50,789 bases of DNA from Bacteroidales bacterium (GTDB taxonomy: Bacteria > Bacteroidota > Bacteroidia > Bacteroidales > P3), in assembly GCA_009777915.1 (NCBI GenBank), contig WRKV01000003.1, positions 1-50,789 on the forward strand, written 5' to 3'. Below are positions 15,105 through 50,461 of this stretch, piece by piece. The notes under the pieces are model-generated. The model had not been told where the DNA came from. It saw only the letters and a list, made by a program, of their open reading frames with translations, and ran no database searches. Every line of letters begins with the position of its first letter. Within the stretch, counting starts at the first letter, position 1. A program made the translations under genes and the position numbers.

Positions 15105-18100
15105 CTACGGCACATTCCGCACACAACGCAGGGCGAACCCCGTCTCCTTTGCAAACCCGCCATGCGTTACATTGGCAGCAGTGATGGACAGGGCAGTCGT
15201 TATGGTGGTACCTGCGTTGGAGGCCGTCCAGTAGCCCGAATTCGGAACTGCCGGATTGTTGCCACGACCTGAAAAGCGACGCGACTGCCAAGTTCCGCCA
15301 ATTTGACCAAGAGTGGTACCAATATAGTTGCCTTCAGAGGGAGGTCCAATAGTTGTCGTACCCGTGAGAATAAAATGCAATGTTCTAAAATCCTCAGCCG
15401 TCGGTACACGCCAACCGTCACCCGGAGGACAAAGTCGCTCCGCATAACGCATCACAAAACACCACGAAAAATAGTGTCCGTGAAAATTGTTGTTGTTTGT
15501 ACCACTCACAATCGCATTCCTGCATGTGGTTATGGTATTGCCCGTATTCCAAGTATTTGTATCGGCACAATTGCTCACCAAAACCACGTCCGACCAAATT
15601 TGTACTTCCGATCCTCTCGAAAGCGGTGTAGAGCCTGTCATCGGATCGGTATTGCTTGGATTACCGTAGGTTACCGTGCCAAATGTTCCCGAGTTTATCG
15701 CTCCGGTACAATTTATCGCCTCAAGTTCTTCGGGCGACAATTCGCCGGAAGAATTGACAATATGCTTGCCACTTGTATTGGTTGTGGTTGTGCTGCCACA
15801 ATCATTGGTAGCCACAGCGTAGTAGAACACGCCTACGGTGTCTATGGTAGTGGTAGGCGGATCAAAGGTGTTGGAGTTTGCACCACCTGTGTTGCCCATG
15901 CTTGTGCCGGTTGCTCCTGCGGTGCTGCTTGCTGTGAGGCTCGAATACCACTGAATGGTTGGTGCAGGCGTTGCGAGAGCAGTGCTAAGTGTAAGAGGAA
16001 AATCAAAGGCAGTGCCTCGTGTTGTAGTTTGGTCGTCGGTAGGTGTAACCGTGCCGATATCAGGGGGTACCATGACATGAACAGTAAACGTGAAATCCCA
16101 CGATGTACCTAATTCTGTTATGGTTACGGTTACATCGAAATCTGTTTCTTCGATTAAATCCGGTATGGTGATGCTTGATGTGGTTTCGCCTGTGCTCCAA
16201 AGATAGGTATTTGTGCCGGGGTTGGTCCAACCCAAAGTTGCCTCTTGTCCGAAGCAAATGGATTTGTTCAAAAATGCAGAATCCGGGAACGGATCAAACA
16301 ATTCGTCCAATCTTGTGGTTGAGATCTCAACGGTATACTTTCCGCTAAGATTCGAGGCTGCTGTTCCGCAGGAATTGGTTACCACAACGAAGTATCTCCA
16401 CACACTTATAGAATCAACGGGGGGCGTGTACGTGGCGGTGTTGTTGATGTTTCGAGCGGGAATACCTGCGTCGAAAGCCGGCGGATTTTCGTCTGCATAG
16501 GTATCGGGCACCCTCCGCCATTGGTAGGTCAGCGGAGCAGTTCCAGTGGCTGCAACAGTGAGCGTACCGGGCGAGAAGGCTGTTTCTTCCATCGTTATCA
16601 AATCATCGGTTGCAGGTTGTGTTGTGATAGCAGGATCTTCGCAATCGGGGACTACATCCCGCACACATCGCAACGCCAAGCCAAACTGCTTGGCATTCAT
16701 GGTTTGTGGTGAGATGGCTGTTGCCATAATATCCAAAAGATAAGCGTCTGATGGTAGGATATCTCCTACTGCTGTTGATGACCAATAGGCTGACCTTGCT
16801 GCAACGGTGAGACCTGTGGCAATCGCCGTAAAGCGAGACCCTTTCCAATCACCTGCCCAATTTTCAGCAACACTGCTCGACCCTTCGTCACCAATATACT
16901 TCACAACTTGATTGGCAATGGTAACGCCGTTTAGCGTACCACTCGTACCTGAACGATTAGCCCCTGTACCACCATGCAACGCTATATCCAAATCCACAAA
17001 ATCCTGACGAGTGGGAACACGCCATGGGGCAGGACAAAGTTGAGGTGCATAACGCTGCACAAAACACCAACTGAAATAATGTCCGTTGAAGCCATTCTCC
17101 GCATTACGACAATCGGTACGATATCCGTCTGTGATGCCGAAGTCATAATCATCTTTATCGCAATTGCTCACCGTTACAACGTCCGACCAGACCTGTGATA
17201 TGCCGTTTCCGGAAATGGTGATGGTTTGGGTTTCGATATCGGGTCTATTGCCCCAAGTTATAGCACCAAGAGGACCCGAAACAGGCTCGTTGGTTGTTGC
17301 TATGGCACGACAGCCCAACGGTGTCAGTTCCGTATCGGGCACTCCCTCATAAGGTTCTACCGTATAGCCTACGCTCGGCGGGGTTCGATCGGTTCCGCAA
17401 ATGCTGGTTACAACGGCATAGTAGTAGACCGGACCTCCGGGAACGTTGTTAGGCGGCGTAAAGGACGTGCCTGTTTCGCCCGATATGACCGACCCCGACG
17501 TGTTGTCGTCGGTTGTGGTCGACCACCATTCGATGGTGGGCGAGTGCGAACCTCCTACGGTTAGCACGAGTTCATCAAAACTGCCTGTATTTTGGGTGAT
17601 GCTTTGTGCCGTAGAGGGTGCGGTTTCCCACAAAACGGTGGGATCCTCACAATTCAATCGATCGGCATCATTGATTACACAACGCAATACTTGTCCAACA
17701 CCACGAGCCTCTCCCGACCCTAAAACGATATTATTGGTTGTTCCAAATCGGAATCTACGTGCCGTAGCGGGTGTGGTGGATCCGTTGGCATCTCTCGTCC
17801 AGTAGGGTGATACATTATTGTTGCCTGAGGCAAACCCTGATCCCGAATATGTTGAAGTATACCGATTGGCGTTTGACACCGAACCTTCGCCACTACCTCC
17901 CCAACGCAACACAGGGTCGCCGGGAGTGATATAGCGAGTGGCAACATCAAAGGTACCGCTATGCGTAACTTCGGAAGCCCCTGTACGGAGCAGAGCAGCA
18001 ACGGTGGCAGCACTTTGAGTCGAGCCTACCGTGCTGGTTTCACTACCTCCAAGAGCAATATGCAACGCTACAAAATCCTGTGCCGAAGGAACTGTCCAAG

Positions 18101-21100
18101 GGTGAGGACATAAAACCTCCTGAAGGCGATAAACCATACACCACGAGAAATAATCGCCAAGATAGGCATAATGGTCATAGCCTGAAGTCTGCGTAGCAGT
18201 AGGGCGGTTGGTGCTGTTTGCAGCATTCCGACAATCGGTTTTTTGTGTTACATCACCATCGTTAGGAAATGGTTCCTGCGATGTTCCCAAGGCAACCCAA
18301 GTTGTTTTGTTACAACCCGGAGCCAGTACCACGTCCGACCACACCTGATCGCCCACTCTCCAAACACGATTGGTTTTGAAATAAGGCGTTCCAAGACTTC
18401 CTCCTGCATAAGGAGGGGTATTGAATAAGCATTCTTGGGGTATATACTCGTCAACGGTTCGTTCTCCGCTGAATGCAGAGATCGTTGTTCCGCACACATT
18501 GCGAGCCTCAACATGGTAATACCGTGTGCCTATAATGTTCGTAGGTAGGCTGTTAGACGTTGTGGTAGCCGGTGTGGTGGCAGACTGTGTTTCGTTGCCA
18601 AGCGTCTGACGACCAACAGTGTCTTGGGTTTCGGCAAAATACCATTGGAAAAAGATTGGTGCAGTGCCGGACACTGTGGCAGTCAGCGTATTGGGCGTAA
18701 ACGCCGTATGTTGAACCGTAAACAGTGTTCCGGCGTTGGGATTGGTTGTGAATTCCGGTGCGAAGTACACGATAGCCGTCACTTCGGTTCGTGCTGAAAC
18801 ACAGCCCCAAGCATTCACAGCCTCCACGTAGTAGGTGGTGCTGTCGCTGATGGTAGGTGTGGTAAACTCCGTACCTGTGTACAGAAGTGTTCCGCCCTCA
18901 GAGGCATCATACCAGCGTAGGGTGTCGCCTAATGCTGTTGTTGCCCTAAGGGTTGCCGATCCCTCGCCACAGATGGTGTCGTGGGTGATGGTCAGCACTT
19001 CGGGAACCAAATCGATAATGGTTACCTGTTGCGTTTTAGCTTCACTCCAGCAGTTGCCTGTTGTAGAGAGGGCACGAGCATGCCACACTCCACTCGAAGT
19101 GATGCTTGGCGAAGTAGTGCCGGGGTTGGTAAGATTATCATCGTCGGGGTCGTTACCCTCACGCCAATAAATCGTACCGGCAACACCGTTGTCGATAGAT
19201 GTCGACAATTCAGTCGACTCGCAAGTTATGGACAATCCCGATATGTCGGCTATGGTAGGTACAGCATGAACCGTTACCTGCACCACATCGCTCTCAATTG
19301 CAGGACAAGCCGTTTGCTCCGACATCGTTATCACAACCCGATACCAATGGTCGGACGGCATGGTGTCGGAAATGGTTAGCGTAGTGCCGGTTTCATCGGA
19401 TATATCCGTAGGAGTGAGGCACACCTCGCCCTCACAAATCTGCCATTGGTAGGTCATACCGGTGCCTGTGGCTATCACCGCAAGGGTCACATTGCCCTCT
19501 CCCATACAAATCGTATCACCCACAGGCTCTGTGGTGATGCTTGCTTGATCCACGACTTGAATATATTGGAAAAACTCGCCTTCGCAGCCGTTGTCGGTGT
19601 TGGTGATGGTTACCGTGTAGCGTGTTTGCACGATGGGAGGTGTAGTGATGGTCAGGATTTTGGTGTCGTCGCCGGTGTTCCAAAGATAGCTCAGGTTATC
19701 TCCGGTGATATTGGGTGTGATGGTAATATCTCCACCCACATGCGGGTTGCATATCGTGCTGTGGCTCACGGTGAAACCGCCGTCAAGTTCGGGTGCATCA
19801 AGCACCGTAGGAACATATATCTCCACCTCCTCGCTCACACAAAGTGTTGTTGCATGGCGAACCTGCACCGTGTGATTGCCGTGCGACAATCCGGTAAACA
19901 CGTTGTTACTTCCAAACGAGGTTCCATCAATGGTATATTCCAGTCCGGCTTGCGGAGTTATGGTAATGGTTCCGTTGTAAGGTGCTACGCAGACTTCGTT
20001 TGCGGTTGGTGTTGCTCCCGGAAAAACAGGAGGAATGTTCACGGTCAGCACAACTTCAGTTCGCTCTGCTGATGAGCAGGTTCCGTCCCACGCTTGTGCG
20101 AAGTACGACCGTGTAGCATTGATTTCGGGCGATTGCCACGCCGCTCCTGAAGCGGTAAGGCTACCTTCTATCGGCAGAGTAGCATCATCGGTTTCAAACC
20201 AACGAATGGCAGTAGCATCGGCTGTGGTGACTGTTATGTTGAAATGAACCTCTGTATCAACCAAGCATTGCGGGTCGGGTGCAGTTACCTGCGGAGTGGC
20301 AGGTAAGAGCAGCACGGTGGCTGTAACTGCTGTACGAGTGGTTGACACACAACCCTCATCGGAAACCACCTCAACGTAGTAGGTCGTGCTTTCGCTGATG
20401 GTCGGCGTGGTAAAGGTTATACCTGTGTGCAGAAGTGTTCCACCCTCAGGGGCATCATACCAGCGAATGGTGTCGCTGTCTTGACCTTCTGCCTTGAGCT
20501 GTGCTATCCCTGATCCGCAGATGGTGTCAAGCGTTAAGGTTGGTACATCAGGCAGGGTGTAGGTTGCAGGTTTCACACAGCGTAGCAAAACGCCGTAGCC
20601 TTTTGTATAACGTGATTCAGGAACAATCCAAGCAGTTGTGGCAAACTGAAATACTTGTGCATGACCTGTATCGATCTGTGTTTGCGACCAATAGCGTGTA
20701 TTACTACTCGCACTGTTTATCGTATTACCCCAAATACCTCCACCATAGGGCCAAGGCGGACTACCGGCTAATATCACACCTGCAGCACCCCAAGTTCTAC
20801 CTGCAACAACAGGATTGGCAAGACATAGAGGAGCATCACCATCAGCATCAAGAATACCGCTGTGGGCAAGACCAATCAATCGCAGAAAAACGTCTTCATC
20901 AGTATAGTCTTCGGTAGGATCAACCTCTGTGCCTCCTAAATCCCGATTCAACTGCAAAAACTGCTCCGTTGTAGGAACACTCCAAGGTGCAGGACACAGC
21001 TGGTTTTGAAACCTGTGAACCATACACCACGAAAAATAATCACCACGATACTCGCCATGGTTGGCAATGGTGTAAGAATCGCCGTTTTGGCGGGTTGCAG

Positions 21101-24100
21101 GTCTGCCTGTGGTACCGCTCGCAATACAATCTGCAAACTGCCAGGTTGAATATGAGCCTGAAATGTAGTCGGCGGGCGTTCTATCGGCACAATGTGGTGC
21201 CAAAACTACGTCAGACCAAACCCAGTCACCAACCCTCCAAACCCGGTCGGTTCTCAAATAAGGCATACCTTTGGCAATGAAATCATCAAGAGATAATTCT
21301 TCATTGCACCCTGCGGTATCATTCACCCTATGCCTACCGCTCACATCTGAAATAATAGGGCAAGGCGTGCCGGGGTTTATCACAACAAAATACCATCTGT
21401 CGCCGATCTCAACATCGGATTGTGGAATATAAATGTTTGTTGTAGCACCGTTGCCGGTGAGGGCGGTGGCTGTAGTAAGGTCGGTTGTATCGGTTGTGTT
21501 GAAATACCACTGGTAGGTCAGGTCTGTCCCTGTAGTCTCCACCGACAACGTATCGAAAGGCGTAGAGTTTTGAGCCCTTTGCACAGCCGTTGTGTCGGGT
21601 TGTTGTTCGATATCGGGCTCGAATATAACGATAGCCCTAACGGGTATACGTGGGGCTGAAGCACAACCCTCGGGAGTTACAGCCTCAACATAGTAAATCA
21701 CGCTTTCGCTGATGGTCGGCGTAATAAGCTCGGTGCCTGTGTGTACATGGGTTCCACCTTCAACTGCGGTATACCAATGGATAGTATCGTTCTCGTCCGC
21801 CAGTGTCGCTGTAAGGGTTAGCACACCCTCGCTACAGACGGTATCATGGGTTACAACAGGAGCATCCGGCAGAGCAAAGGAGTGAATCGTCGCCTCAACC
21901 GGTATCCGAACCCCTGAAACACAACCCCACATACTCATGGTTTCGATATAATAGGTCGTGCTTTCGCTGATGACAGGAGTCGTAAACTCGTTGCCTGTAT
22001 GCAACGGTGTTCCGCCTTCGGCAACATCATACCAACGGACTATCCCACAGGCAGGTATTGCCGAAAGGGTTACGCTTCCCTCCCCACAGTTCGAGCCTTG
22101 AATTGCAACAGGTGCAACAACCGGTGGAAGGAAAGGATAGATGATGACCCTCATCGCTATGCGAGGGGTTGAAACATTGCCCAAATCATTCACAGCCTCA
22201 ACGTAGTAGATGGTGCTTTCGCTGATGATAGGAGTGGTAAATTCGGTGCCTGTGTGCAGAAGTGTTCCACCCTCAGGAGCGTCATACCAACGGATCGTGT
22301 CGCTTTCGGCGGCCGGTGTTGCAGTGAGGGTCAAAGAGCCCGCTCCGCAGTTGGTAGTGCTGTGAATAACCGTAGGTGCAGCAGGTACAAGAGGAGATCG
22401 TTCCTCACGAACGCAACGAAGCAAATATCCGCTTTCTCGGGGTGCCAAAGCATTCAAAAAAACACTACCATCATTAATATAATTCAATCCCCAAGCATAC
22501 ATACCTTCGACTGATGATCCGGCATCGTCCGCCGGCACAGCCGTGTTATAGAACCCTCTGGTGCGATTGCTCAAAACACTACCACCTAAAACAGATCCGG
22601 ATATGGTGCCTCCCCAAGCAGTGTTGCTCACCGTTTGCGGAATAGAGGCATCATTACCCGCAATCAAACGGTTAGATAAAGTAGCACCGCCGGCAGGACT
22701 AAAGTTGGTAAGAGTAGAGCCGGCTAAAGTAGAAAGCAAAACCTTAAAATCTTCTTCCGTAGGAACACGCCACCCATCACCGGAAGGACACAACCTGTGC
22801 TGAAAACGATGAACCATACAAAAGTTGAAAAAATCGCCATTGTAACCCATACGATCAGACCAATCATGTGCCTGTTGAGAGGTAGGACGTGGGGCTTCGG
22901 TAGCAATAGTCAGATTGTTTTCGCTCACCCTGCAATTAGCAATCGCACGACTGCCAACATCGGTAAACGATGTTTTGTTGCAGCCCGCAGCCAAAACAAC
23001 GTCCGACCACTCTTGGCCGCCTACCACCCATGTTCTGTTGGTCTTGAAATAAATCGGTTCGAGTGTAAACGACGGAGTGTTGTTATTGCAAGGAGCAATA
23101 GGCTGCACAGCAACCCGATGCAACCCGCTAACGTCGGATACCGCATCACAACAGAAATTAGCTGCCACAACATAGTAGTACATCTCGCCTATTTCGGTTG
23201 TGGAGGGTTCAAACGTCGGACCCGTAGCACCAAACACCGGTGTTCCACCCACGTTGCTGTTGTCGGTATTGGCATACCATTGGTAGAACATGGGCTGACT
23301 TCCCTCAACCGTAACCGAGAGGGTATCGGGGTCGAAAGCCACACCCTGAAAGGTGGTTCGAGTAGTGATGTCCGGATGGGTAATGATTTGTGGAGGGGTG
23401 TAAGTAATCGCGGTAATCGGTGTGAGTGTGTCTAAAGAGCAGCCTTCGGCACTCACAATTTCGAGGTAGTAAGTAGTGTTCCCGGTGATAATGCGGGTCA
23501 TAAATTCGGTGCCTGTGTGCAAAAGGGTTCCGGCATCATACCAACGGATCGTGTCGCTGTCCAAGCCTGTTGCTCGGAGGGTTGCTATGCCACCTCCGCA
23601 AATGGTGTCGGGGATTATGGTCAACGTAGGTAAGGGACGTATCATAACCTGAACGGCATCGCTTGTGTCGGGTGGGCACAAACCGTCGGCATGGCTCACA
23701 ATCAAACGATACCAAGCATTGGAAGCGATGGTGTCGGAGATGGTCAGGGTGTGGGTGGTATCGTTAAGCATATCCGCAAAGGCATCGCCGTCAAGGCATG
23801 CCTCACCCTCACAAATCTGCCATTGGTAAATCAGGTCATCAATATCATCGACCGTTACCGCAAGGACAACCTCTCCCCCATTCACACAAATTTCATCGCC
23901 TTCGGGTTGAGTGATGATGATGCTGTCGGGGCAATACAGCACAATTTCGTTTTCCGAAAACGTACTGTTGACCACTTGCAACGTCGTTCCATAGATTGCC
24001 GAACCGCTGATTCCGGCTGTATTTCTCACAAACAAGGTGTTAAAAACGATACCGTCGCCTTCGGCAAAAATTCCACCGCCATACTGCACAGCTCGATTGT

Positions 24101-24560
24101 CGATGATATGACAATTCCTTACGACGGCATCAACACTCATGTAAACACCGCCTCCGGAAGGCTGTTCAGACGATCTCGCAAAGCCGTTGCGAATGATGAA
24201 ACCATCTAAAACCGCCGCAATTCCTAAGTGAATGACGGTAAATGCAGAATCTCCGTTTTCAATCGTGGTTAAATTTACTGCATAATTTCGTTGTTCGATG
24301 GTGGGATTTCCTACAGTCGGAAATCCGCCGAGCAACTTGATATTTGCGGGAACTATCAAGGTTGTATCAAGAGTATATGTCCCGGCTTGCACCCAAATAT
24401 CGTCGGGCGAAGTTTGTGCCAAAATCATGGCATTTTGCAAGGTGGTTGCATTTGCCCAATCCGACCCGGTTCCTGTGCCGGTCGGTGTAACATGGATTTG
24501 TGCAAAACCGCTAATGCAGATGGCAAGTGCGGTTGCTGATATTAAAAGTTTTGTTTTCAT
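15105..24560 (-). CDS. Giant surface protein with beta-helix, Ig-like and five FISUMP modules
   Basis: 3151 residues. A signal peptide (MKTKLLISATALAICISGFAQ) is followed by the start of a right-handed beta-helix (about 22-205, with GGGVYM, GGGIFAEG, GSAIYG turns). At least six Ig-like modules of one pattern follow (TICG.G.ATL.A...DTIRWYDA..GGTLLHTGTEFTTP.IS.STTYYVEAV...GC), along with other Ig/PKD-like units. Five FISUMP modules (Fibrobacter succinogenes major paralogous domain) lie at about 503-720, 1100-1330, 2058-2295, 2433-2635 and 2958-3151. Each shows W.VG...WSDVV..C, a DCR/NCR cysteine, GDYFSWCMVHRF, LCP.PW.VPT..DF..L and a closing LRCV. I see no T9SS C-terminal signal: it ends directly in a FISUMP module. 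It is the last gene of an operon with a PorP/SprF protein (18 bp) and a type B signal protein, suggesting a cell-surface or secreted complex. Ligand unknown. Confidence 0.85.
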   Translation of the reverse strand: MKTKLLISATALAICISGFAQIHVTPTGTGTGSDWANATTLQNAMILAQTSPDDIWVQAGTYTLDTTLIVPANIKLLGGFPTVGNPTIEQRNYAVNLTTIENGDSAFTVIHLGIAAVLDGFIIRNGFARSSEQPSGGGVYMSVDAVVRNCHIIDNRAVQYGGGIFAEGDGIVFNTLFVRNTAGISGSAIYGTTLQVVNSTFSENEIVLYCPDSIIITQPEGDEICVNGGEVVLAVTVDDIDDLIYQWQICEGEACLDGDAFADMLNDTTHTLTISDTIASNAWYRLIVSHADGLCPPDTSDAVQVMIRPLPTLTIIPDTICGGGIATLRATGLDSDTIRWYDAGTLLHTGTEFMTRIITGNTTYYLEIVSAEGCSLDTLTPITAITYTPPQIITHPDITTRTTFQGVAFDPDTLSVTVEGSQPMFYQWYANTDNSNVGGTPVFGATGPTFEPSTTEIGEMYYYVVAANFCCDAVSDVSGLHRVAVQPIAPCNNNTPSFTLEPIYFKTNRTWVVGGQEWSDVVLAAGCNKTSFTDVGSRAIANCRVSENNLTIATEAPRPTSQQAHDWSDRMGYNGDFFNFCMVHRFQHRLCPSGDGWRVPTEEDFKVLLSTLAGSTLTNFSPAGGATLSNRLIAGNDASIPQTVSNTAWGGTISGSVLGGSVLSNRTRGFYNTAVPADDAGSSVEGMYAWGLNYINDGSVFLNALAPRESGYLLRCVREERSPLVPAAPTVIHSTTNCGAGSLTLTATPAAESDTIRWYDAPEGGTLLHTGTEFTTPIISESTIYYVEAVNDLGNVSTPRIAMRVIIYPFLPPVVAPVAIQGSNCGEGSVTLSAIPACGIVRWYDVAEGGTPLHTGNEFTTPVISESTTYYIETMSMWGCVSGVRIPVEATIHSFALPDAPVVTHDTVCSEGVLTLTATLADENDTIHWYTAVEGGTHVHTGTELITPTISESVIYYVEAVTPEGCASAPRIPVRAIVIFEPDIEQQPDTTAVQRAQNSTPFDTLSVETTGTDLTYQWYFNTTDTTDLTTATALTGNGATTNIYIPQSDVEIGDRWYFVVINPGTPCPIISDVSGRHRVNDTAGCNEELSLDDFIAKGMPYLRTDRVWRVGDWVWSDVVLAPHCADRTPADYISGSYSTWQFADCIASGTTGRPATRQNGDSYTIANHGEYRGDYFSWCMVHRFQNQLCPAPWSVPTTEQFLQLNRDLGGTEVDPTEDYTDEDVFLRLIGLAHSGILDADGDAPLCLANPVVAGRTWGAAGVILAGSPPWPYGGGIWGNTINSASSNTRYWSQTQIDTGHAQVFQFATTAWIVPESRYTKGYGVLLRCVKPATYTLPDVPTLTLDTICGSGIAQLKAEGQDSDTIRWYDAPEGGTLLHTGITFTTPTISESTTYYVEVVSDEGCVSTTRTAVTATVLLLPATPQVTAPDPQCLVDTEVHFNITVTTADATAIRWFETDDATLPIEGSLTASGAAWQSPEINATRSYFAQAWDGTCSSAERTEVVLTVNIPPVFPGATPTANEVCVAPYNGTITITPQAGLEYTIDGTSFGSNNVFTGLSHGNHTVQVRHATTLCVSEEVEIYVPTVLDAPELDGGFTVSHSTICNPHVGGDITITPNITGDNLSYLWNTGDDTKILTITTPPIVQTRYTVTITNTDNGCEGEFFQYIQVVDQASITTEPVGDTICMGEGNVTLAVIATGTGMTYQWQICEGEVCLTPTDISDETGTTLTISDTMPSDHWYRVVITMSEQTACPAIESDVVQVTVHAVPTIADISGLSITCESTELSTSIDNGVAGTIYWREGNDPDDDNLTNPGTTSPSITSSGVWHARALSTTGNCWSEAKTQQVTIIDLVPEVLTITHDTICGEGSATLRATTALGDTLRWYDASEGGTLLYTGTEFTTPTISDSTTYYVEAVNAWGCVSARTEVTAIVYFAPEFTTNPNAGTLFTVQHTAFTPNTLTATVSGTAPIFFQWYFAETQDTVGRQTLGNETQSATTPATTTSNSLPTNIIGTRYYHVEARNVCGTTISAFSGERTVDEYIPQECLFNTPPYAGGSLGTPYFKTNRVWRVGDQVWSDVVLAPGCNKTTWVALGTSQEPFPNDGDVTQKTDCRNAANSTNRPTATQTSGYDHYAYLGDYFSWCMVYRLQEVLCPHPWTVPSAQDFVALHIALGGSETSTVGSTQSAATVAALLRTGASEVTHSGTFDVATRYITPGDPVLRWGGSGEGSVSNANRYTSTYSGSGFASGNNNVSPYWTRDANGSTTPATARRFRFGTTNNIVLGSGEARGVGQVLRCVINDADRLNCEDPTVLWETAPSTAQSITQNTGSFDELVLTVGGSHSPTIEWWSTTTDDNTSGSVISGETGTSFTPPNNVPGGPVYYYAVVTSICGTDRTPPSVGYTVEPYEGVPDTELTPLGCRAIATTNEPVSGPLGAITWGNRPDIETQTITISGNGISQVWSDVVTVSNCDKDDYDFGITDGYRTDCRNAENGFNGHYFSWCFVQRYAPQLCPAPWRVPTRQDFVDLDIALHGGTGANRSGTSGTLNGVTIANQVVKYIGDEGSSSVAENWAGDWKGSRFTAIATGLTVAARSAYWSSTAVGDILPSDAYLLDIMATAISPQTMNAKQFGLALRCVRDVVPDCEDPAITTQPATDDLITMEETAFSPGTLTVAATGTAPLTYQWRRVPDTYADENPPAFDAGIPARNINNTATYTPPVDSISVWRYFVVVTNSCGTAASNLSGKYTVEISTTRLDELFDPFPDSAFLNKSICFGQEATLGWTNPGTNTYLWSTGETTSSITIPDLIEETDFDVTVTITELGTSWDFTFTVHVMVPPDIGTVTPTDDQTTTRGTAFDFPLTLSTALATPAPTIQWYSSLTASSTAGATGTSMGNTGGANSNTFDPPTTTIDTVGVFYYAVATNDCGSTTTTNTSGKHIVNSSGELSPEELEAINCTGAINSGTFGTVTYGNPSNTDPMTGSTPLSRGSEVQIWSDVVLVSNCADTNTWNTGNTITTCRNAIVSGTNNNNFHGHYFSWCFVMRYAERLCPPGDGWRVPTAEDFRTLHFILTGTTTIGPPSEGNYIGTTLGQIGGTWQSRRFSGRGNNPAVPNSGYWTASNAGTTITTALSITAANVTHGGFAKETGFALRCVRNVP

Positions 24561-24578: not shown

Positions 24579-25514
24579 TTATTGCCACCAATTAGGTTGA
24601 TAATTTACTTCTTCTCTTTTCCAAAGTTGGAAAGTGTAGTTGATTTGAATTTCGTGTGAACCGCGTTGGTAAGGTTTCAGTGCACCATAAGAAACGCCGT
24701 AAGAATAACCGATTCTAAAACCTTCTGCAACATTGGCTTTTAGGTTGAAATTAACGGTTCTGGATCCGGTTCGTAACATAACACCCATTCCATACGTGTT
24801 TTCATAAAATACATGTAATCCCACATTGACCAAAAACGGCACTGTGTGAACGTAACGCATAAAAATTTCCGGGCGTACAGACCATTCGCCCATACGGTGA
24901 ACATATCCACCCATTAAATAAAATTGCGACCTCATTTGCGAATACCATTCCCGTCCGTTTATTTGGTGAATGCCGTATCTGGGTTGCATCAAATTCATGG
25001 CAGAAATACCGGCATACCAATTCATAGCCAAATAGTAAGCTCCAAAACCCGCGTCAAACTTGGTGTTTTGTGTACGTCCTTTTTCTAAAGTAGGGTCGTT
25101 TTCGTGCATAACATACTCGATTTTATCCCAATCCACAATATGATTCAAAAATCCGGCTTGAACGCCCAAATTGAGGATACCTTTACTTAAATAAACTTTG
25201 TGTGAATAGTTGGTATAAGCCGAATTTCCGGTCAGGTTGCCCCATTCCTCACGTTGGTATACAAAGCCCAGAGCGTTTCTCTGACTTTCAAACGGAGCAT
25301 GTCCGTTGAAGTTGATAATAGTTGGTGAACCTCGCATACCTACCCACGATTTATGAGTCGTTAAATTGATGGATAATAAGTCGTAAAGTCCTGTATAGCC
25401 CGGATTGTACAAGATTTGATTACCGGTATACATCGCCAACGGAACAGCTAACTGAGCAAATGTTTTTCCGCCGAAACAGATGAAAATTGCTAATATAAAA
25501 ATTTTGTTTTTCAT
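24579..25514 (-). CDS. PorP/SprF family type IX secretion outer-membrane protein
   Basis: 311 residues with signal peptide (MKNKIFILAIFICFGGKTFAQ). The segment AVPLAMYTGNQILYNPGYTGLYDLLSINLTTHKSWVGMRGSPTIINFNGHAPF is the hallmark of the PorP/SprF family, and the rest alternates in the way of an outer-membrane beta-barrel. SprF-type proteins sit beside genes for SprB-like adhesins in gliding and non-gliding Bacteroidota and are needed to secrete or attach those with type B C-terminal domains. Here it lies between a type B cargo protein (12 bp upstream) and the giant FISUMP protein (18 bp downstream), so a dedicated role for one or both is likely. Family call is strong; partner choice is inference. 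Confidence 0.9.
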   Translation of the reverse strand: MKNKIFILAIFICFGGKTFAQLAVPLAMYTGNQILYNPGYTGLYDLLSINLTTHKSWVGMRGSPTIINFNGHAPFESQRNALGFVYQREEWGNLTGNSAYTNYSHKVYLSKGILNLGVQAGFLNHIVDWDKIEYVMHENDPTLEKGRTQNTKFDAGFGAYYLAMNWYAGISAMNLMQPRYGIHQINGREWYSQMRSQFYLMGGYVHRMGEWSVRPEIFMRYVHTVPFLVNVGLHVFYENTYGMGVMLRTGSRTVNFNLKANVAEGFRIGYSYGVSYGALKPYQRGSHEIQINYTFQLWKREEVNYQPNWWQ

Positions 25515-25526
25515 GGTAATAGGTGT

Positions 25527-26684
25527 TTATTTAGATTTAGATGCTTTCATTAATAACCAACCCGCCATAGATGCTACATCTTCGGCTAAGATGACGTAGT
25601 AGTAAATTCCATCGGGCAGAACTTGATTTCGTTTATTTTTTCCGTCCCATCGTCTGTTCGGATCCTCGTTGTCGTAGTTGGCAATGCGATTCACTTCATC
25701 ACCTGCACTGTTGAGAATAATCACCGTATTGATCGGATAACGTTCAATATATTTGATTCCCAAATAGTCGTTAAATTCGTCGTTGTTCGGCGAAATGTAA
25801 AGCGTTGGCATCACTCGCCGGTACGAACACGGTATGGAAATAATTGCTGAGGATTCGCAGCTTTCTTCATCGGTTACGATTAGGGTGTAACTACCGGATT
25901 CTACATTAATCAGGTCTTGACCTGCGGAGTGGTAAAGCCCTGAGTGGTTATACCATTCAAACGTAAAATTTGTAAGGTCTCCCACCCCACCTGAAATCGT
26001 TGTAAAGACTGAACCTCCGCTACAATCCTCCCCTCCGGCGGTGGTTACGGATTGTACTGTGATACTCACCGGAATGCTTGCCGGCACGGTCACGGTATCG
26101 GTTCTGGAAATACCGCCAACATCTGTAACCGTAACTGTGTAGGTTCCGGGTTGCAGGTTTGGATTCAACATGTCGCTAACACCATTACTCCATAAATAAG
26201 TGTAAGGTCCTGTTGATCCGGTCGCCGTCGCACTTGCCCAGCCTTCGCCGGCAATACAGCCGGCACCGAAATCCATAGCAATTGTAAAGGTATCCACCTC
26301 CACGATCGGCTCGTTGTATTCAAATGCTCCCATACTCACACCCGCAGTTACTAAGCGAGAATTGAAGTCCAAGCATAATGAATCTTGTTCATAATTCCAA
26401 GCCGATGGATTTCCACTCTTGAATGCCGGACTTGTTTCGTCGATTCGAAAATTTGCAACAAAAGGTGTTGCTGTCAGCTCAATGTTTCCCGGTCCGGTAG
26501 TCAAGGAATCTAACGCTGAATGTTCGACTTCGGTTTCTGAGGAAACCGGATTTTGATCTCGATTTCCATAAATAACAGAGTTGGTCACCTTCCCGCCAAC
26601 GCTGAGATGAACAACGTTTTGTGCAACAAGATGTGGCACAGATAGCGGCAAGCAACAAACTGCCGTAAGCAATGTTTTTTTCAT
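25527..26684 (-). CDS. SprB-repeat protein with T9SS type B C-terminal domain
   Basis: 385 residues counted from ATG 26684, which gives a clean signal peptide (MKKTLLTAVCCLPLSVPHLVAQ); an in-frame ATG at 26717 lies 11 residues earlier. Residues 22-125 look like the closing part of a beta-helix domain (VTNSVIYGN... ETSPAFKSGNPS... SMGAFEYNE), without its earlier turns. A SprB-type repeat follows (GPYTYLWSNG... LQPGTYTVTVTD), then a second similar unit ending in YTLIVTDEESCESSAIISIPC. The last ~85 residues are a gliding-motility-type (type B) sorting domain: PTLYISPNNDEFNDYLGIKYIERYP, VIILNSAGDEV, WDGKNKRNQVLPDGIYYYVI. It is the first gene of the operon with the PorP/SprF and giant FISUMP genes and has a 330-nt leader. 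Exported through T9SS; function likely adhesion or anchoring. Confidence 0.85.
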   Translation of the reverse strand: MKKTLLTAVCCLPLSVPHLVAQNVVHLSVGGKVTNSVIYGNRDQNPVSSETEVEHSALDSLTTGPGNIELTATPFVANFRIDETSPAFKSGNPSAWNYEQDSLCLDFNSRLVTAGVSMGAFEYNEPIVEVDTFTIAMDFGAGCIAGEGWASATATGSTGPYTYLWSNGVSDMLNPNLQPGTYTVTVTDVGGISRTDTVTVPASIPVSITVQSVTTAGGEDCSGGSVFTTISGGVGDLTNFTFEWYNHSGLYHSAGQDLINVESGSYTLIVTDEESCESSAIISIPCSYRRVMPTLYISPNNDEFNDYLGIKYIERYPINTVIILNSAGDEVNRIANYDNEDPNRRWDGKNKRNQVLPDGIYYYVILAEDVASMAGWLLMKASKSK

Positions 26685-26779
26685 TTGGTATATTTTTGAT
26701 GATTGTTTTTTGGTCATATTAGGATGATTGATTTTGACTTTAGAGCAATAAAAAAACGCGGACTTAATTCCTTGTATTT

Positions 26780-26893
26780 GCTTCTGAGGTCCTAGCTAAC
26801 CTTGTAACCAAATGTAAGAGTAAAGCCCACGCAATCACGTGGGCACTCTCGCTTTACTCTTGGTTACTTTTGAAAATGCTAGGTTTCAGAAGC
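26780..26893 (-). ncRNA. Long rod-shaped structured RNA in the leader of the surface-protein operon
   Basis: Five stacked stems on one axis: GCTTCTGA/TCAGAAGC (26780-26787 with 26886-26893), CCTAGC/GCTAGG, GTAACCAA/TTGGTTAC, AGAGTAAAG/CTTTACTCT, and a closing hairpin GCCCACG/CGTGGGC, with asymmetric bubbles between. In the operon direction, about 22 nt past the rod there follows AAGTCCGCG, a T run and ATTGC, the same tail as in the RNA at 48620-48808. It lies between the promoter box at 27022-27029 and the start codon at 26684. It could be a cis-acting leader or a small RNA with 6S-like shape; strand is inferred from the T run and promoter. Confidence 0.55.
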
Positions 26894-27021
26894 AAAAATA
26901 AAAACGTAAGTGCTTGTTCGTTATGTTTTTTTTTACGTAATTATTTTACGCAGATTTTTCATAGGCGGTTTATGTTGTTTGTTGAAAATATCATGTCATC
27001 AAATTCTTTGATTTCAGGCTG

Positions 27022-27029
27022 CAAAGATA
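27022..27029 (-). promoter_or_regulatory. Promoter -7 box for the surface-protein operon
   Basis: TATCTTTG on the minus strand with a TTG element about 20 bp upstream. The predicted transcript has a leader of some 330 nt, containing the rod-shaped RNA. Besides this, 26894-27021 is AT-rich and holds no gene that I can support. Confidence 0.6.
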
Positions 27030-48605: not shown

Positions 48606-48613
48606 TATCTTTG
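48606..48613 (+). promoter_or_regulatory. Promoter -7 box for the structured RNA / FISUMP gene
   Basis: TATCTTTG, followed about 75 nt later by the rod-shaped RNA and at 48783 by a terminator. Confidence 0.65.
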
Positions 48614-48619
48614 CAAAAC

Positions 48620-48808
48620 AAAAACCCAAACCATGAAATAAACGGAAATATAAGTAAAAATAGCGTTTGCTAATTCTTGTTTGTCGGAAACTCGACACTT
48701 CCAAATAACTACGAGATAAGTGCAACGCCTGTAGAACGGGCTTGCTTTATTTGTAGTTATGGGCAGTCGAGTGCCTCGATAAACGGATTTGTCAAGTCCG
48801 TTTTTTTT
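48620..48808 (+). ncRNA. Structured small RNA with its own terminator (6S-like shape)
   Basis: From the promoter at 48606 to the terminator the transcript would be about 190 nt. It folds into one rod: ACTCGAC/GTCGAGT (48690-48696 with 48766-48772), an internal loop, ATAACTAC/GTAGTTAT (48705-48712 with 48753-48760), another bubble, GCAA/TTGC and a terminal GCC/GGC hairpin. Size and shape fit 6S RNA, the RNA polymerase decoy, which in Bacteroidales was first described under another name. It could instead be an attenuating leader of the FISUMP gene 51 bp further on. No coding frame of note is inside. Confidence 0.5.
48783..48808 (+). terminator. Terminator at the end of the structured RNA
   Basis: ACGGATTT-GTC-AAGTCCGT (8 pairs, one G-T) followed by eight T. 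The sequence AAGTCCG, T-run, ATTGC recurs downstream of the rod at 26780-26893. Confidence 0.8.
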
Positions 48809-48816
48809 ATTGCCCT

Positions 48817-48855
48817 AAATCATAAAACATAAATCATAAAACATAAACCATAAAT
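48817..48855. repeat. AT-rich tandem repeat (AAATCATAAAACAT units)
   Basis: About 2.5 copies of a 14-bp unit directly before the ATG of the FISUMP gene at 48860, in the ribosome-binding region. The same class of repeat as 13990-14035. Confidence 0.7.
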
Positions 48856-48859
48856 ACCT

Positions 48860-50461
48860 ATGAAAAAAATCACCCTAATCTTAATCCTTATCGCAAGTTT
48901 TGGAACCCAAAGTTTTGCGTATTGTCCTATTCCGCAATGGTGCCCATCAGCCCCCTTGCATCAGACTCTCTGCCCGGGCGAGTCGATAGAGGATATCGAA
49001 TTTCCATCGGTAATCGGAAAAACCCTTGTCATCACTTGGTGGACAGATGGCACACGCATCCATTCTTTTGAAGATCCTCCTCCCGGCATCACGGTTTCCG
49101 GCGACGCCTTAAATCCGCTCGGCGACCGAGAATACGCATGGCCTGTTTCTATTAAAGGTTCACCCACAACTCCCGGCACGCATCATTACACTGTGAGCAA
49201 TACTTGTGGTGTGGAGTTACTACACGGTAGCATCACTCTGGCACCACCAACTCCCGCAACACCCGGAACCATCACGTTTAGCCCTACTTCGGTTTGTATA
49301 GGTGGCGCATTTACAGCATCTGTCAGTGCTGTAAGTGGGGCTGATTTTTATACATGGACTACGCCTGCGAATATGACCGATGACGGTAGTACGACTACGT
49401 CTTTGAGTGTTACTAATGCAGGCACCACAGCGGGTAGTCTCCCTGTTTCGGTAACGGCGACTAATTCTTGCGGAACAAGTTCGCCAAGTACGGCGAATAT
49501 CACCGTTCACGCCACTTTCGCTGCCGGAACCATCGCATCAACAGGGCAAACCCTCATTGCAGGACAAGCCTTTACCACAATAGGTAGCACTACCAATGCA
49601 AGCGGAGGAGGACCCAGCATCGAATACCAATGGCTCAATGGAGGAACTGTCATAGCAAATTCCAACAGTGCCACCTTCACACCCACCACTGCCACCGGTG
49701 CAGGAACCTACACCCGACAAGCCCGAAACACAGGAACCGGTGCCTGCCAAACTTCGTGGGTAACCTCATCAGGATCGTGGATCGTTGTCGTGATTCCCGC
49801 TTGTCCCGGCACACCGGGCGACTTGTCGCTATGCACAGGGGTTAACGATGTTCCTACTATCGGCACGGTGAGTTGGGGCGGAAATACCAATATAGAGACA
49901 AACACTCGCACAATTTCCGGCAACGGGATTACTCAGCAATGGTCGGGTGCTGTAGCCACCACCACATGTAGCACTCGAACAACATTCACCTTTGATACTA
50001 TAGCAACCTCTTGTCGTAATCCCATCAATGGTTTTAATGGTCATTACTTCAGTTTCTGTTTTGTGATACGTTATGCTGCCATGCTTTGTCCTTCGCCTTG
50101 GCGTGTGCCCACTTGTCAGGATTTTGCGAATTTGGATGTTGCTTTGGGAGGTACAGGTATTAACCGTGCAGGTACATCTGGCACAGTGAACGGAGTGACT
50201 ATTGAGAATCAGGTTGGTTGGTATATCGGCAATGCCGGATCGGGCGATCTCGCTGTGAACAACGGCGGAATTTGGGGAGGCACTCGCTTTACTGCACGTG
50301 CGGGACAGGACACGGCTGGTCTTTCGTACTATTGGTCATCAAGTCAGTTCAGTAGTACGAATGCGATTATACTGCACTTGGGGGATCGTATCCTCTACCC
50401 AGTGTACGAGCACATTAAGGAGAACGGCTTTGCGTTGCGGTGTGTGCGGGATGTACCATAG
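48860..50461 (+). CDS. Secreted protein with Ig/PKD-like domains and one C-terminal FISUMP module
   Basis: 533 residues with signal peptide (MKKITLILILIASFGTQSFA). A cysteine-rich start (YCPIPQWCPSAP) is followed by two or three Ig/PKD-like domains rich in Thr/Ser/Gly (PTSVCIGGAFTASVSAVSGADFYTW...; a second unit ends AGTYTRQARNTGTGACQT). The last ~200 residues form one FISUMP module: TISGNGITQQWSGAV, TSCRNPINGFNGHYFSFCFVIRYAAMLCPSPWRVPTCQDFANLDVALGG, then YYWSSSQ and ENGFALRCVRDVP. It is most like the fourth module of the giant protein (compare GTSGTVNGVTIENQV with GTSGTLNGVTIANQV). No T9SS C-terminal signal is visible, so its export beyond the periplasm is uncertain. Composition is richer in G and C than the neighbours. 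Confidence 0.85.
   Translation: MKKITLILILIASFGTQSFAYCPIPQWCPSAPLHQTLCPGESIEDIEFPSVIGKTLVITWWTDGTRIHSFEDPPPGITVSGDALNPLGDREYAWPVSIKGSPTTPGTHHYTVSNTCGVELLHGSITLAPPTPATPGTITFSPTSVCIGGAFTASVSAVSGADFYTWTTPANMTDDGSTTTSLSVTNAGTTAGSLPVSVTATNSCGTSSPSTANITVHATFAAGTIASTGQTLIAGQAFTTIGSTTNASGGGPSIEYQWLNGGTVIANSNSATFTPTTATGAGTYTRQARNTGTGACQTSWVTSSGSWIVVVIPACPGTPGDLSLCTGVNDVPTIGTVSWGGNTNIETNTRTISGNGITQQWSGAVATTTCSTRTTFTFDTIATSCRNPINGFNGHYFSFCFVIRYAAMLCPSPWRVPTCQDFANLDVALGGTGINRAGTSGTVNGVTIENQVGWYIGNAGSGDLAVNNGGIWGGTRFTARAGQDTAGLSYYWSSSQFSSTNAIILHLGDRILYPVYEHIKENGFALRCVRDVP

What the first reader, a model, noticed from the sequence alone, without database searches (positions are those of the whole stretch)
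26738..26893. The two structured RNAs share a 3' tail and both precede FISUMP-type loci
Both rods are followed, in the direction of the downstream gene, by AAGTCCG, a run of seven or eight T, ATTGC and CTAAA. One is at 26737-26770 (minus strand), the other at 48794-48819 (plus strand). Two rods with the same tail in front of two related surface-protein loci suggest a shared, undescribed regulatory RNA family.
Basis: partly seen in the sequence, partly recalled or inferred. Interest (0 to 1): 0.75.

Follow-up and report, generated by a model that had tools for sequence, protein, structure and literature searches.

The report
Two-way RNA switch before surface genes
A stretch of about 170 letters, found twice in this window and 72 times in its genome, is predicted to fold either into one long rod or into two hairpins, the second of which would stop transcription, so it is likely a widespread, undescribed switch that sets whether the gene behind it, often for a surface protein, is read.

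Summary
The tail (AAGTCCG, T-run, ATTGC) occurs twice in the window and 27 times in the genome; the reversed pattern never does. It is the 3' strand of a leader RNA of about 160-200 nt. A covariance model finds 72 copies in this genome. This genome included, it matches 38 of 61 relatives, 105 of 295 genomes of the order, 62 of 296 of the class and 16 of 198 of the phylum. No Rfam family reached threshold on the copies tested. Stems P1-P3 covary strongly. Four further segments pair as 1:2, 2:3 and 3:4. The 2:3 rod excludes the 1:2 and 3:4 hairpins, and 3:4 ends at the U-run: trp-attenuator logic without biosynthetic genes. 65 of 66 readable copies here face a co-directional gene. Predicted mechanism: transcription attenuation, rod as antiterminator. 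Against a simple reading, the rod always wins at equilibrium (0 of 202 full-length folds show the terminator), so termination needs kinetic or bound-factor control. The signal is unknown. A start-plus-stop mini-ORF precedes 70 of 72 copies here but is not general.

The parts
27022..27029 (-). Bacteroidota-type -7 promoter element TATCTTTG of copy 1
   Evidence: sequence; TAnnTTTG lies within 150 nt upstream of 61 of 72 own copies against 5.2 expected from mononucleotide shuffles. The consensus itself is recalled.
26933..26962 (-). mini-ORF of copy 1: ATG, 8 further codons, stop
   Evidence: sequence; 70 of 72 own copies have ATG plus at most 8 codons plus stop here
26742..26915 (-). copy 1 of the leader RNA
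   Evidence: model R1, 90.3 bits, E 2.0e-15. This copy was one of the 26 rows R1 was built from.
26896..26913 (-). segment 1 (s1) of copy 1; limits approximate
   Evidence: 5' half folded alone pairs GCACUU..CGUUUU with AAAGCG..GAGUGC
26843..26861 (-). segment 2 (s2) of copy 1; limits approximate
   Evidence: pairs with s1 in the 5' half and in part with s3 in the rod
26816..26832 (-). segment 3 (s3) of copy 1, GCGUGGGCUUUACUCUU
   Evidence: rod partner of s2; terminator partner of s4
26757..26769 (-). segment 4 (s4) of copy 1, ending AAGUCCGCG: the finding's tail
   Evidence: 3' half folded alone: GCGUGGGCUU pairs with AAGUCCGCG directly before the U-run, -26.2 kcal/mol
26750..26756 (-). U-run of copy 1 (T7)
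   Evidence: sequence
25527..26717 (-). gene after copy 1: CHU_C / SprB protein, 396 aa (type IX secretion type)
   Evidence: Pfam; the SprB match is below its cut-off
24579..25514 (-). PorP/SprF membrane protein, next gene
   Evidence: Pfam
15105..24560 (-). 3151-aa protein with Ig_7 (7 stretches) and Fib_succ_major (4 stretches), third gene
   Evidence: Pfam
48606..48613 (+). -7 promoter element TATCTTTG of copy 2
   Evidence: sequence
48633..48641 (+). mini-ORF of copy 2: ATG AAA TAA
   Evidence: sequence
48655..48816 (+). copy 2 of the leader RNA
   Evidence: model R1, 141 bits, E 4.2e-26. Also one of the 26 rows of R1.
48662..48679 (+). segment 1 (s1) of copy 2, AGCGUUUGCUAAUUCUUG
48713..48732 (+). 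segment 2 (s2) of copy 2, GAGAUAAGUGCAACGCCUGU
48736..48754 (+). segment 3 (s3) of copy 2, ACGGGCUUGCUUUAUUUGU
48784..48800 (+). segment 4 (s4) of copy 2, CGGAUUUGUCAAGUCCG. Its end pairs with s3 in the extended terminator; it can also form a local GGA..UCC hairpin.
48801..48808 (+). U-run of copy 2 (T8)
   Evidence: sequence
48860..50461 (+). gene after copy 2: PKD_6 / Fib_succ_major protein, 533 aa
   Evidence: Pfam; the Fib_succ_major match is just below its cut-off

Best explanation
This is a family of 5' leader RNAs, found 72 times in this genome, that is predicted to fold in two mutually exclusive ways and so likely decides by transcription attenuation whether RNA polymerase reads on into the gene behind it. 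Shown from sequence: the order promoter, (in this genus) mini-ORF, s1, P1, P2, P3a, s2, apical loop, s3, P3a', P2', P1', s4, U-run, gene. The P1-P3a stems covary. s1:s2, s2:s3 and s3:s4 are each complementary and, over copies from several genera, pair better with their own partner than with a swapped one. Predicted: s1:s2 forms first as a 5' hairpin. When s3 emerges it invades and s2:s3 plus P1-P3a zip into a long rod, the antiterminator. If the 5' hairpin is held instead, s3 stays free to pair with s4 and makes an intrinsic terminator just before the U-run. Inferred and untested: what tips the balance. Candidates are a ribosome on the mini-ORF near s1, a protein on the conserved GAAA/ACCUC internal loop, or polymerase speed. 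Also inferred: the private P1-P3a sequences keep each copy pairing with itself although s1-s4 are nearly interchangeable between copies.
For: Copies: 72 matches with E 4.2e-4 or better in the genome (26 of them trained the model). This genome included, 38 of 61 relatives, 105 of 295 in the order, 62 of 296 in the class. Own-partner versus swapped-partner pairing, 60 copies (37 of this genome, 23 of relatives): P1 z -24.8, P2 -18.6, P3a -30.6, s2:s3 -9.8, s1:s2 -5.7, s3:s4 -6.4; controls s1:s3 -2.3, s2:s4 -0.4. In 86 non-redundant of 100 relatives not used for the model (3 of its sequences are also): -37.2, -24.9, -34.0, -8.9, -6.7, -7.4; controls -0.9 and +1.4. P2 pair 49:212 is CG 32, UA 28, AU 24, GC 16 of 100. 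At the fourth base of the s1 motif AGC(G/A), A has partner U in 17 of 17, while G has C 157, U 27, none 7 (14 more copies lack the motif). The 3' half alone forms a stem from s3 to the U-run in 178 of 202 copies against 22.7% of shuffles. Prefix folds: 5' hairpin in 201 of 202 after s2, s2:s3 in 201 of 202 after s3. Context: downstream neighbours 65 co-directional, 1 not, 6 without room; upstream neighbours 35 versus 36. Promoter element in 61 of 72 own and 100 of 133 other copies.
Against: No RNA data; everything is sequence and energy prediction. At full length the rod is the equilibrium fold in all 202 copies and the terminator in none; mean energies are about -56 to -61 kcal/mol for the rod against about -39 to -45 for both hairpins together, so termination needs kinetics or a bound factor. 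Within this genome alone the swap test is weak: s1:s2 z -1.4 (149 of 2000 permutations as good), s3:s4 -2.3 (31 of 2000); the signal comes from the relatives. The control s1:s3 was itself reached by only 22 of 2000 permutations in the pooled set, and pairing a segment with itself (s1:s1, s3:s3) gave z -8.8 and -10.7, so z alone is not proof. The alignments were fitted to the model, which leans P1-P3a and s2:s3 upward (s1:s2 and s3:s4 are not in the model). s1:s4 and c':a' pairing were not supported; a:c was (z -3.5) but not, where its segments were cut short. With the loose criterion (long or local stem at the U-run) 62% of shuffles also pass against 199 of 202. The mini-ORF is not general: 28 of 49 relatives against 21 expected, 73 of 134 in the order set and 3 of 20 in the class set. 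In relatives 6 of 48 nearest downstream ORFs point the other way by a crude ORF caller, one of them at a weak hit later dropped.
Confidence: 0.65

Rival explanations
1. A protein- or ligand-sensing leader: the conserved internal loop (GAAA against ACCUC, UUUCA against GGGU) in the rod is a receptor, and binding picks the fold. It would still be a leader switch, but the essential part is the receptor.
For: In 100 relatives the last two A of GAAA (100 and 99%), the CC of ACCUC (100 and 99%) and one G of GGGU (99%) are nearly invariant although they sit in an internal loop of the rod.
Against: Alternative pairings within each half could explain part of this conservation, but they were not supported by the swap test. 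The very mixed downstream genes do not point to one metabolite. A specialised NusG paralogue is not obviously required: a draft genome with 10 copies has a single NusG-domain match.
Confidence: 0.2
2. An mRNA-stability or processing element: the rod protects the 5' end or is cut by a double-strand RNase, and the U-run is incidental.
For: Full-length RNA is predicted to be rod at equilibrium in all 202 copies folded.
Against: A stabiliser does not explain why s1 is complementary to s2, why s4 is complementary to s3 next to a U-run (178 of 202 copies), or why swaps weaken these pairings among relatives.
Confidence: 0.08
3. A free-standing small RNA with its own promoter and terminator that acts in trans.
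For: It has a promoter element and a terminator-like end.
Against: 65 of 66 readable own copies sit 5' of a co-directional gene, 64 of them with the called start no more than 91 nt behind the RNA, while upstream neighbours are random in direction. Private stems pair well only with their own partner.
Confidence: 0.04
4. A mobile palindromic DNA repeat (MITE- or attC-like) with no RNA role.
For: High copy number, an inverted-repeat body and several copies at contig ends.
Against: Orientation to the gene, promoter element and U-run, and base-pair-level compensation of different stem sequences. One apical pattern had a single match in the viral contig collection.
Confidence: 0.02

Closest known systems
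trp-type ribosome-mediated transcription attenuators (Enterobacteria; Bacteroid-trp RF01692 in Bacteroidota)
   Same: Four segments with 1:2, 2:3 and 3:4 pairing, 3:4 followed by a U-run, and (in this genus) a short ORF 5' of segment 1.
   Different: No biosynthetic genes among the families found; a mini-ORF of ATG plus 0-8 codons that is absent from many relatives and ends before segment 1; private P1-P3a stems that extend the antiterminator; up to 72 copies per genome. No Rfam match to RF01692 in the scans made. The definition of the trp type is recalled.
Translational attenuation of tetQ in Bacteroides (leader of about three codons; recalled, only one listing seen)
   Same: A minute leader ORF before hairpins in a Bacteroidota mRNA.
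   Different: One gene, translation-level control; no 1:2/2:3/3:4 plus U-run arrangement known to me.
UpxY / LoaP (NusG-paralogue) antitermination at capsule and polyketide operons (recalled; LoaP seen as a listing)
   Same: Leader RNA and antitermination in front of long operons, some for surface products.
   Different: No need for a NusG paralogue seen; the competing antiterminator is predicted to be in the RNA itself.
Flavo-1 (RF01705), Bacteroidales-1 (RF01693), DUF805 RNAs
   Same: Structured RNAs of Bacteroidota.
   Different: No overlap in the Rfam scans made. Weak DUF805 and DUF805b hits lie downstream of, not in, two copies.
HMP2_4205, palindromic 132-bp candidate mostly in Bacteroidetes (PMC8040213, passages read)
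   Same: Palindromic, terminator-like, Bacteroidetes.
   Different: Its sequence is in a supplement I could not read, so identity with part of this family is not excluded.

Membership tests
trp-type transcription attenuator | mutually exclusive 1:2+3:4 versus 2:3 pairing | tested here: met
   (complementarity, covariation over relatives, prefix folds); weak within this genome alone
trp-type transcription attenuator | 3:4 is an intrinsic terminator ending at a U-run | tested here: met
   178 of 202 copies long form, 21 more local form, by prediction; termination itself not measured
trp-type transcription attenuator | leader peptide ORF with regulatory codons overlapping segment 1 | tested here: not met
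   mini-ORFs of ATG plus 0-8 codons, often one or two lysine AAA codons, counted only if they end before s1, ATG 20-54 nt 5' of s1; not beyond chance in relatives
trp-type transcription attenuator | controls amino-acid biosynthesis | tested here: not met
   surface, regulator and restriction families among first downstream proteins (the first 25 families listed for each set)
Rfam Bacteroid-trp, Bacteroidales-1, Flavo-1 and other Rfam 15 families | match at the family's gathering score | tested here: not met
   best sub-threshold overlap L20_leader on copy 2, 21.5 bits against 58.7; copy 1 none above 19 bits
riboswitch | conserved aptamer plus expression platform | tested here: inconclusive
   platform predicted; nearly invariant internal loop; no ligand test possible
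UpxY/LoaP processive antitermination | specialised NusG paralogue in the genome | tested here: not met
   G048 has 10 RNA copies and one NusG-domain match; draft genome. This genome has 2 such matches.
mobile repeat | insertion independent of gene orientation | tested here: not met
   65 of 66 downstream co-directional

The most novel reading that the evidence does not exclude
A class-wide RNA-only switch built as X followed by its own reverse complement, where X is itself a hairpin. Every copy is bistable between two hairpins (off) and one rod (on), and private stems give each of up to 72 leaders in one cell its own cis-only address. It could give cell-to-cell on/off variety of surface and restriction genes without DNA inversion: an RNA counterpart of Bacteroidota phase variation.
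Probability: 0.2. Interest if true: 0.92.

Novelty: new variant of a known kind. Interest (0 to 1): 0.8.

Why it matters
Between 8% (phylum sample) and 36% (order sample) of sampled genomes carry this RNA, one of them 72 times, and no Rfam family matched it. If it attenuates, it is a genome-wide layer of control over exported, adhesin-like and restriction genes in gut and environmental Bacteroidota. It also gives a clean natural test of how dozens of nearly identical RNA switches avoid pairing with one another in one cell.

Tried and rejected
Rejected: Rfam families; mobile repeat and trans-acting small RNA (gene orientation); phage origin (one match of one apical pattern in the viral contig collection); a required NusG paralogue. 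The mini-ORF as the general input was dropped because relatives often lack it. Pairing s1:s4, which I first saw by eye, was not supported by swaps; nor was c':a'. a:c is inconclusive.

Rows left out: L006 (truncated at a contig end) from A2; the weak 26-bit second hit in L135 from counts after (it is still among the 49 relatives); copies with odd apices or without a U-run (202 of 207 kept, 222 of 227; one search used 205 of 207); 5 of the 80 listed pattern loci (L213, L215, L241, L244, L245) because of its 100-source cap; 8 of 118 relative proteins from A7, several of them with the MmeI-like start, so that group is undercounted. Genome counts are lower bounds: only 9 to 150 first-look candidates per genome were scored, and E-values of R1 are rough.

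Papers: PMC8040213, PMC10994844 and PMC2864571, passages only; PMC9723704, passages and one section; the others as capped search listings. Attenuator, tetQ and UpxY facts are recalled.

Full report
Observation. The two tails are real and at the stated places. The tail pattern has 2 matches in the window and none in 100 shuffles. In the whole genome (2.33 Mb, 189 contigs) it has 27 matches, and the reversed pattern has none. The 27 stretches (26 of them complete) carry the same kind of element: a long hairpin, a terminator-like end, and a downstream start codon. Two more things recur upstream: a TAnnTTTG promoter element, found at 61 of 72 copies in the wider set (5.2 expected), and a very short ORF.

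Family. I aligned 26 copies and built a covariance model, R1. It finds 72 copies with E 4.2e-4 or better in this genome; 48 are shorter than 172 nt and 24 longer. This genome included, it matches 38 of 61 relatives, 105 of 295 genomes of the order, 62 of 296 of the class and 16 of 198 of the phylum. These samples overlap and the counts are lower bounds. A separate pattern for the apical hairpin gave 85 stretches in named genomes, of which 80 are listed. 76 of the 80 titles name Bacteroidota lineages, 3 say uncultured bacterium and 1 says Clostridia; that last one (L190) is followed by the same protein start as several Bacteroidales copies, so it may be mis-binned. I gave 75 of these 80, plus 25 others, to R1: each of the 100 loci matched, at E 6.9e-8 or better. 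Named carriers include Rikenella microfusus, Millionella massiliensis and Alistipes sp. dk3624.

Structure. P1, P2 and P3a are paired in nearly every copy with quite different sequences. Swapping partners between copies destroys pairing: z -24.8, -18.6 and -30.6 in 60 copies, and -37.2, -24.9 and -34.0 in 86 non-redundant relatives not used to build the model (3 of its sequences are also). In one P2 pair all four Watson-Crick types occur (32, 28, 24 and 16 of 100). The sequences that vary little, s1 to s4, are complementary to one another in a chain. s1 (AGCGUUU..UUAUUCUUG) pairs with s2 (CAAGAAUAAG..AAACGCU). s2 pairs with s3 (CGUGGGCUUACUUAUUUG) in the rod. s3 pairs with s4 (GGAUAAG..AAGUUCACG), which abuts the U-run. 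Each of these pairs scores better with its own partner than with a swapped one: s1:s2 z -5.7 and -6.7, s2:s3 -9.8 and -8.9, s3:s4 -6.4 and -7.4. The off-register controls are weaker: s1:s3 -2.3 (22 of 2000 permutations as good) and -0.9, s2:s4 -0.4 and +1.4. Cautions: within this genome's 37 copies alone s1:s2 (-1.4) and s3:s4 (-2.3) are weak, so the evidence rests on the relatives; a segment paired with itself also gave large z (-8.8, -10.7); and the alignments were fitted to the model's P1-P4. At one position the compensation is plain: where s1 has A instead of G (AGCA), the partner is U in 17 of 17 copies; where it is G, the partner is C in 157, U in 27 and none in 7; 14 copies lack the motif. 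Copy 1 of the window keeps s1:s2 with an altogether different sequence (GCACUU with GAGUGC).

Two states. Folded alone, the 5' half makes the s1:s2 hairpin and the 3' half makes a stem from s3 to the base of the U-run (mean z -2.0 to -3.2). The long terminator stem is present in 178 of 202 copies (22.7% of shuffles), and a local one in 21 more (39.5% of shuffles). The window copies show both halves: -21.3 and -26.2 kcal/mol for copy 1, -16.9 and -25.4 for copy 2, against rods of -60.2 and -57.9. Prefix folds give a predicted order of events: 5' hairpin once s2 is out (201 of 202), s2:s3 once s3 is out (201 of 202), and full rod once P1' is out (202 of 202). At full length the terminator is never the equilibrium fold (0 of 202). 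So, if this is an attenuator, readthrough is the relaxed state, and termination needs the 5' hairpin to be held or the rod to be late.

Context. In this genome the next gene runs in the same direction in 65 of 66 readable cases; in 64 of the 65 the called start lies no more than 91 nt behind the RNA end (6 of them before it, by a crude caller that accepts GTG and TTG). 6 copies lie too near a contig end. The gene on the other side is 35 to 36. Relatives: 42 of 48 co-directional. First downstream proteins here: Fib_succ_major in 34 of 66 and PKD_6 in 15. By my own simple signal-peptide rule 61 of 66 look exported against 10 of 84 other ORFs in the same stretches; in the order 67 of 118 against 87 of 389; in the class set 11 of 17 against 3 of 31. 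Outside this genome the genes are mixed: BspA-type leucine-rich proteins, Por-secretion tails, LytTR regulators, MmeI-like and N6/N4 methylases, and type III restriction helicases (110 of 118 proteins scanned); many starts look like lipoproteins by eye.

Mini-ORF. 70 of 72 own copies have ATG, at most 8 codons and a stop just 5' of s1 (34 expected from shuffles), mostly ATG AAA TAA or ATG TAA. Because the copies are related this is fewer than 70 independent cases. In relatives it is hardly beyond chance (28 of 49 against 21 expected), and in the class set it is rare (3 of 20). It is thus an optional input, not the core.

Known or not. No Rfam 15 family reached its gathering score on the RNA; the best sub-threshold overlap was L20_leader, 21.5 bits against 58.7. 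The listed results of seven literature searches (lists capped) showed no description. The F. psychrophilum transcriptome reports 64 structured 5' regions and leader-peptide attenuation at amino-acid operons (PMC9723704, section read), and a microbiome screen lists a palindromic Bacteroidetes candidate, HMP2_4205 (PMC8040213, passages). I could not compare sequences with either.

Verdict. The family and its double complementarity are well supported; transcription attenuation is the mechanism that best fits; the signal is unknown. It works like a trp-type attenuator but is not filed as a member of that kind, since leader codons over segment 1 and biosynthetic genes were tested and not met.

Noticed in passing
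L064:1311-1378 (-) and L066:1714-1749 (+): Sub-threshold DUF805 and DUF805b RNA hits (E 1.3e-5 and 9.6e-5) lie about 120 and 50 nt downstream of the leader RNA.
   Followed up: no
L079, L131, L169, L171, L190, L193, L203, L208, L216, L220, L228: In a group with one shared protein start (MmeI-like methylases) the first ATG of the downstream ORF lies about 7 nt before the model's end, right behind the U-run, so a terminated transcript would likely lack the start codon.
   Followed up: no
48814-48859 and the same place in many own copies: Between U-run and start codon lie varying numbers of near repeats of CATAAATCATAAAAC, differing in number between copies; possibly slippage-prone.
   Followed up: no
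G000: C9:1-103, C94:1-155, C123 end, C17:428, C28:425: Several copies lie at or near contig ends, as expected if the repeated leaders and gene starts break the assembly; the true copy number may be above 72.
   Followed up: partly
window 15105-24560 (-): A 3151-aa protein with Ig_7 and Fib_succ_major domains behind PorP/SprF.
   Followed up: partly
L252, L253, L258: In one distant genus of the class the leader lies about 220-270 nt before large ORFs with signal-peptide-like starts that look like TonB-dependent receptors by eye.
   Followed up: no
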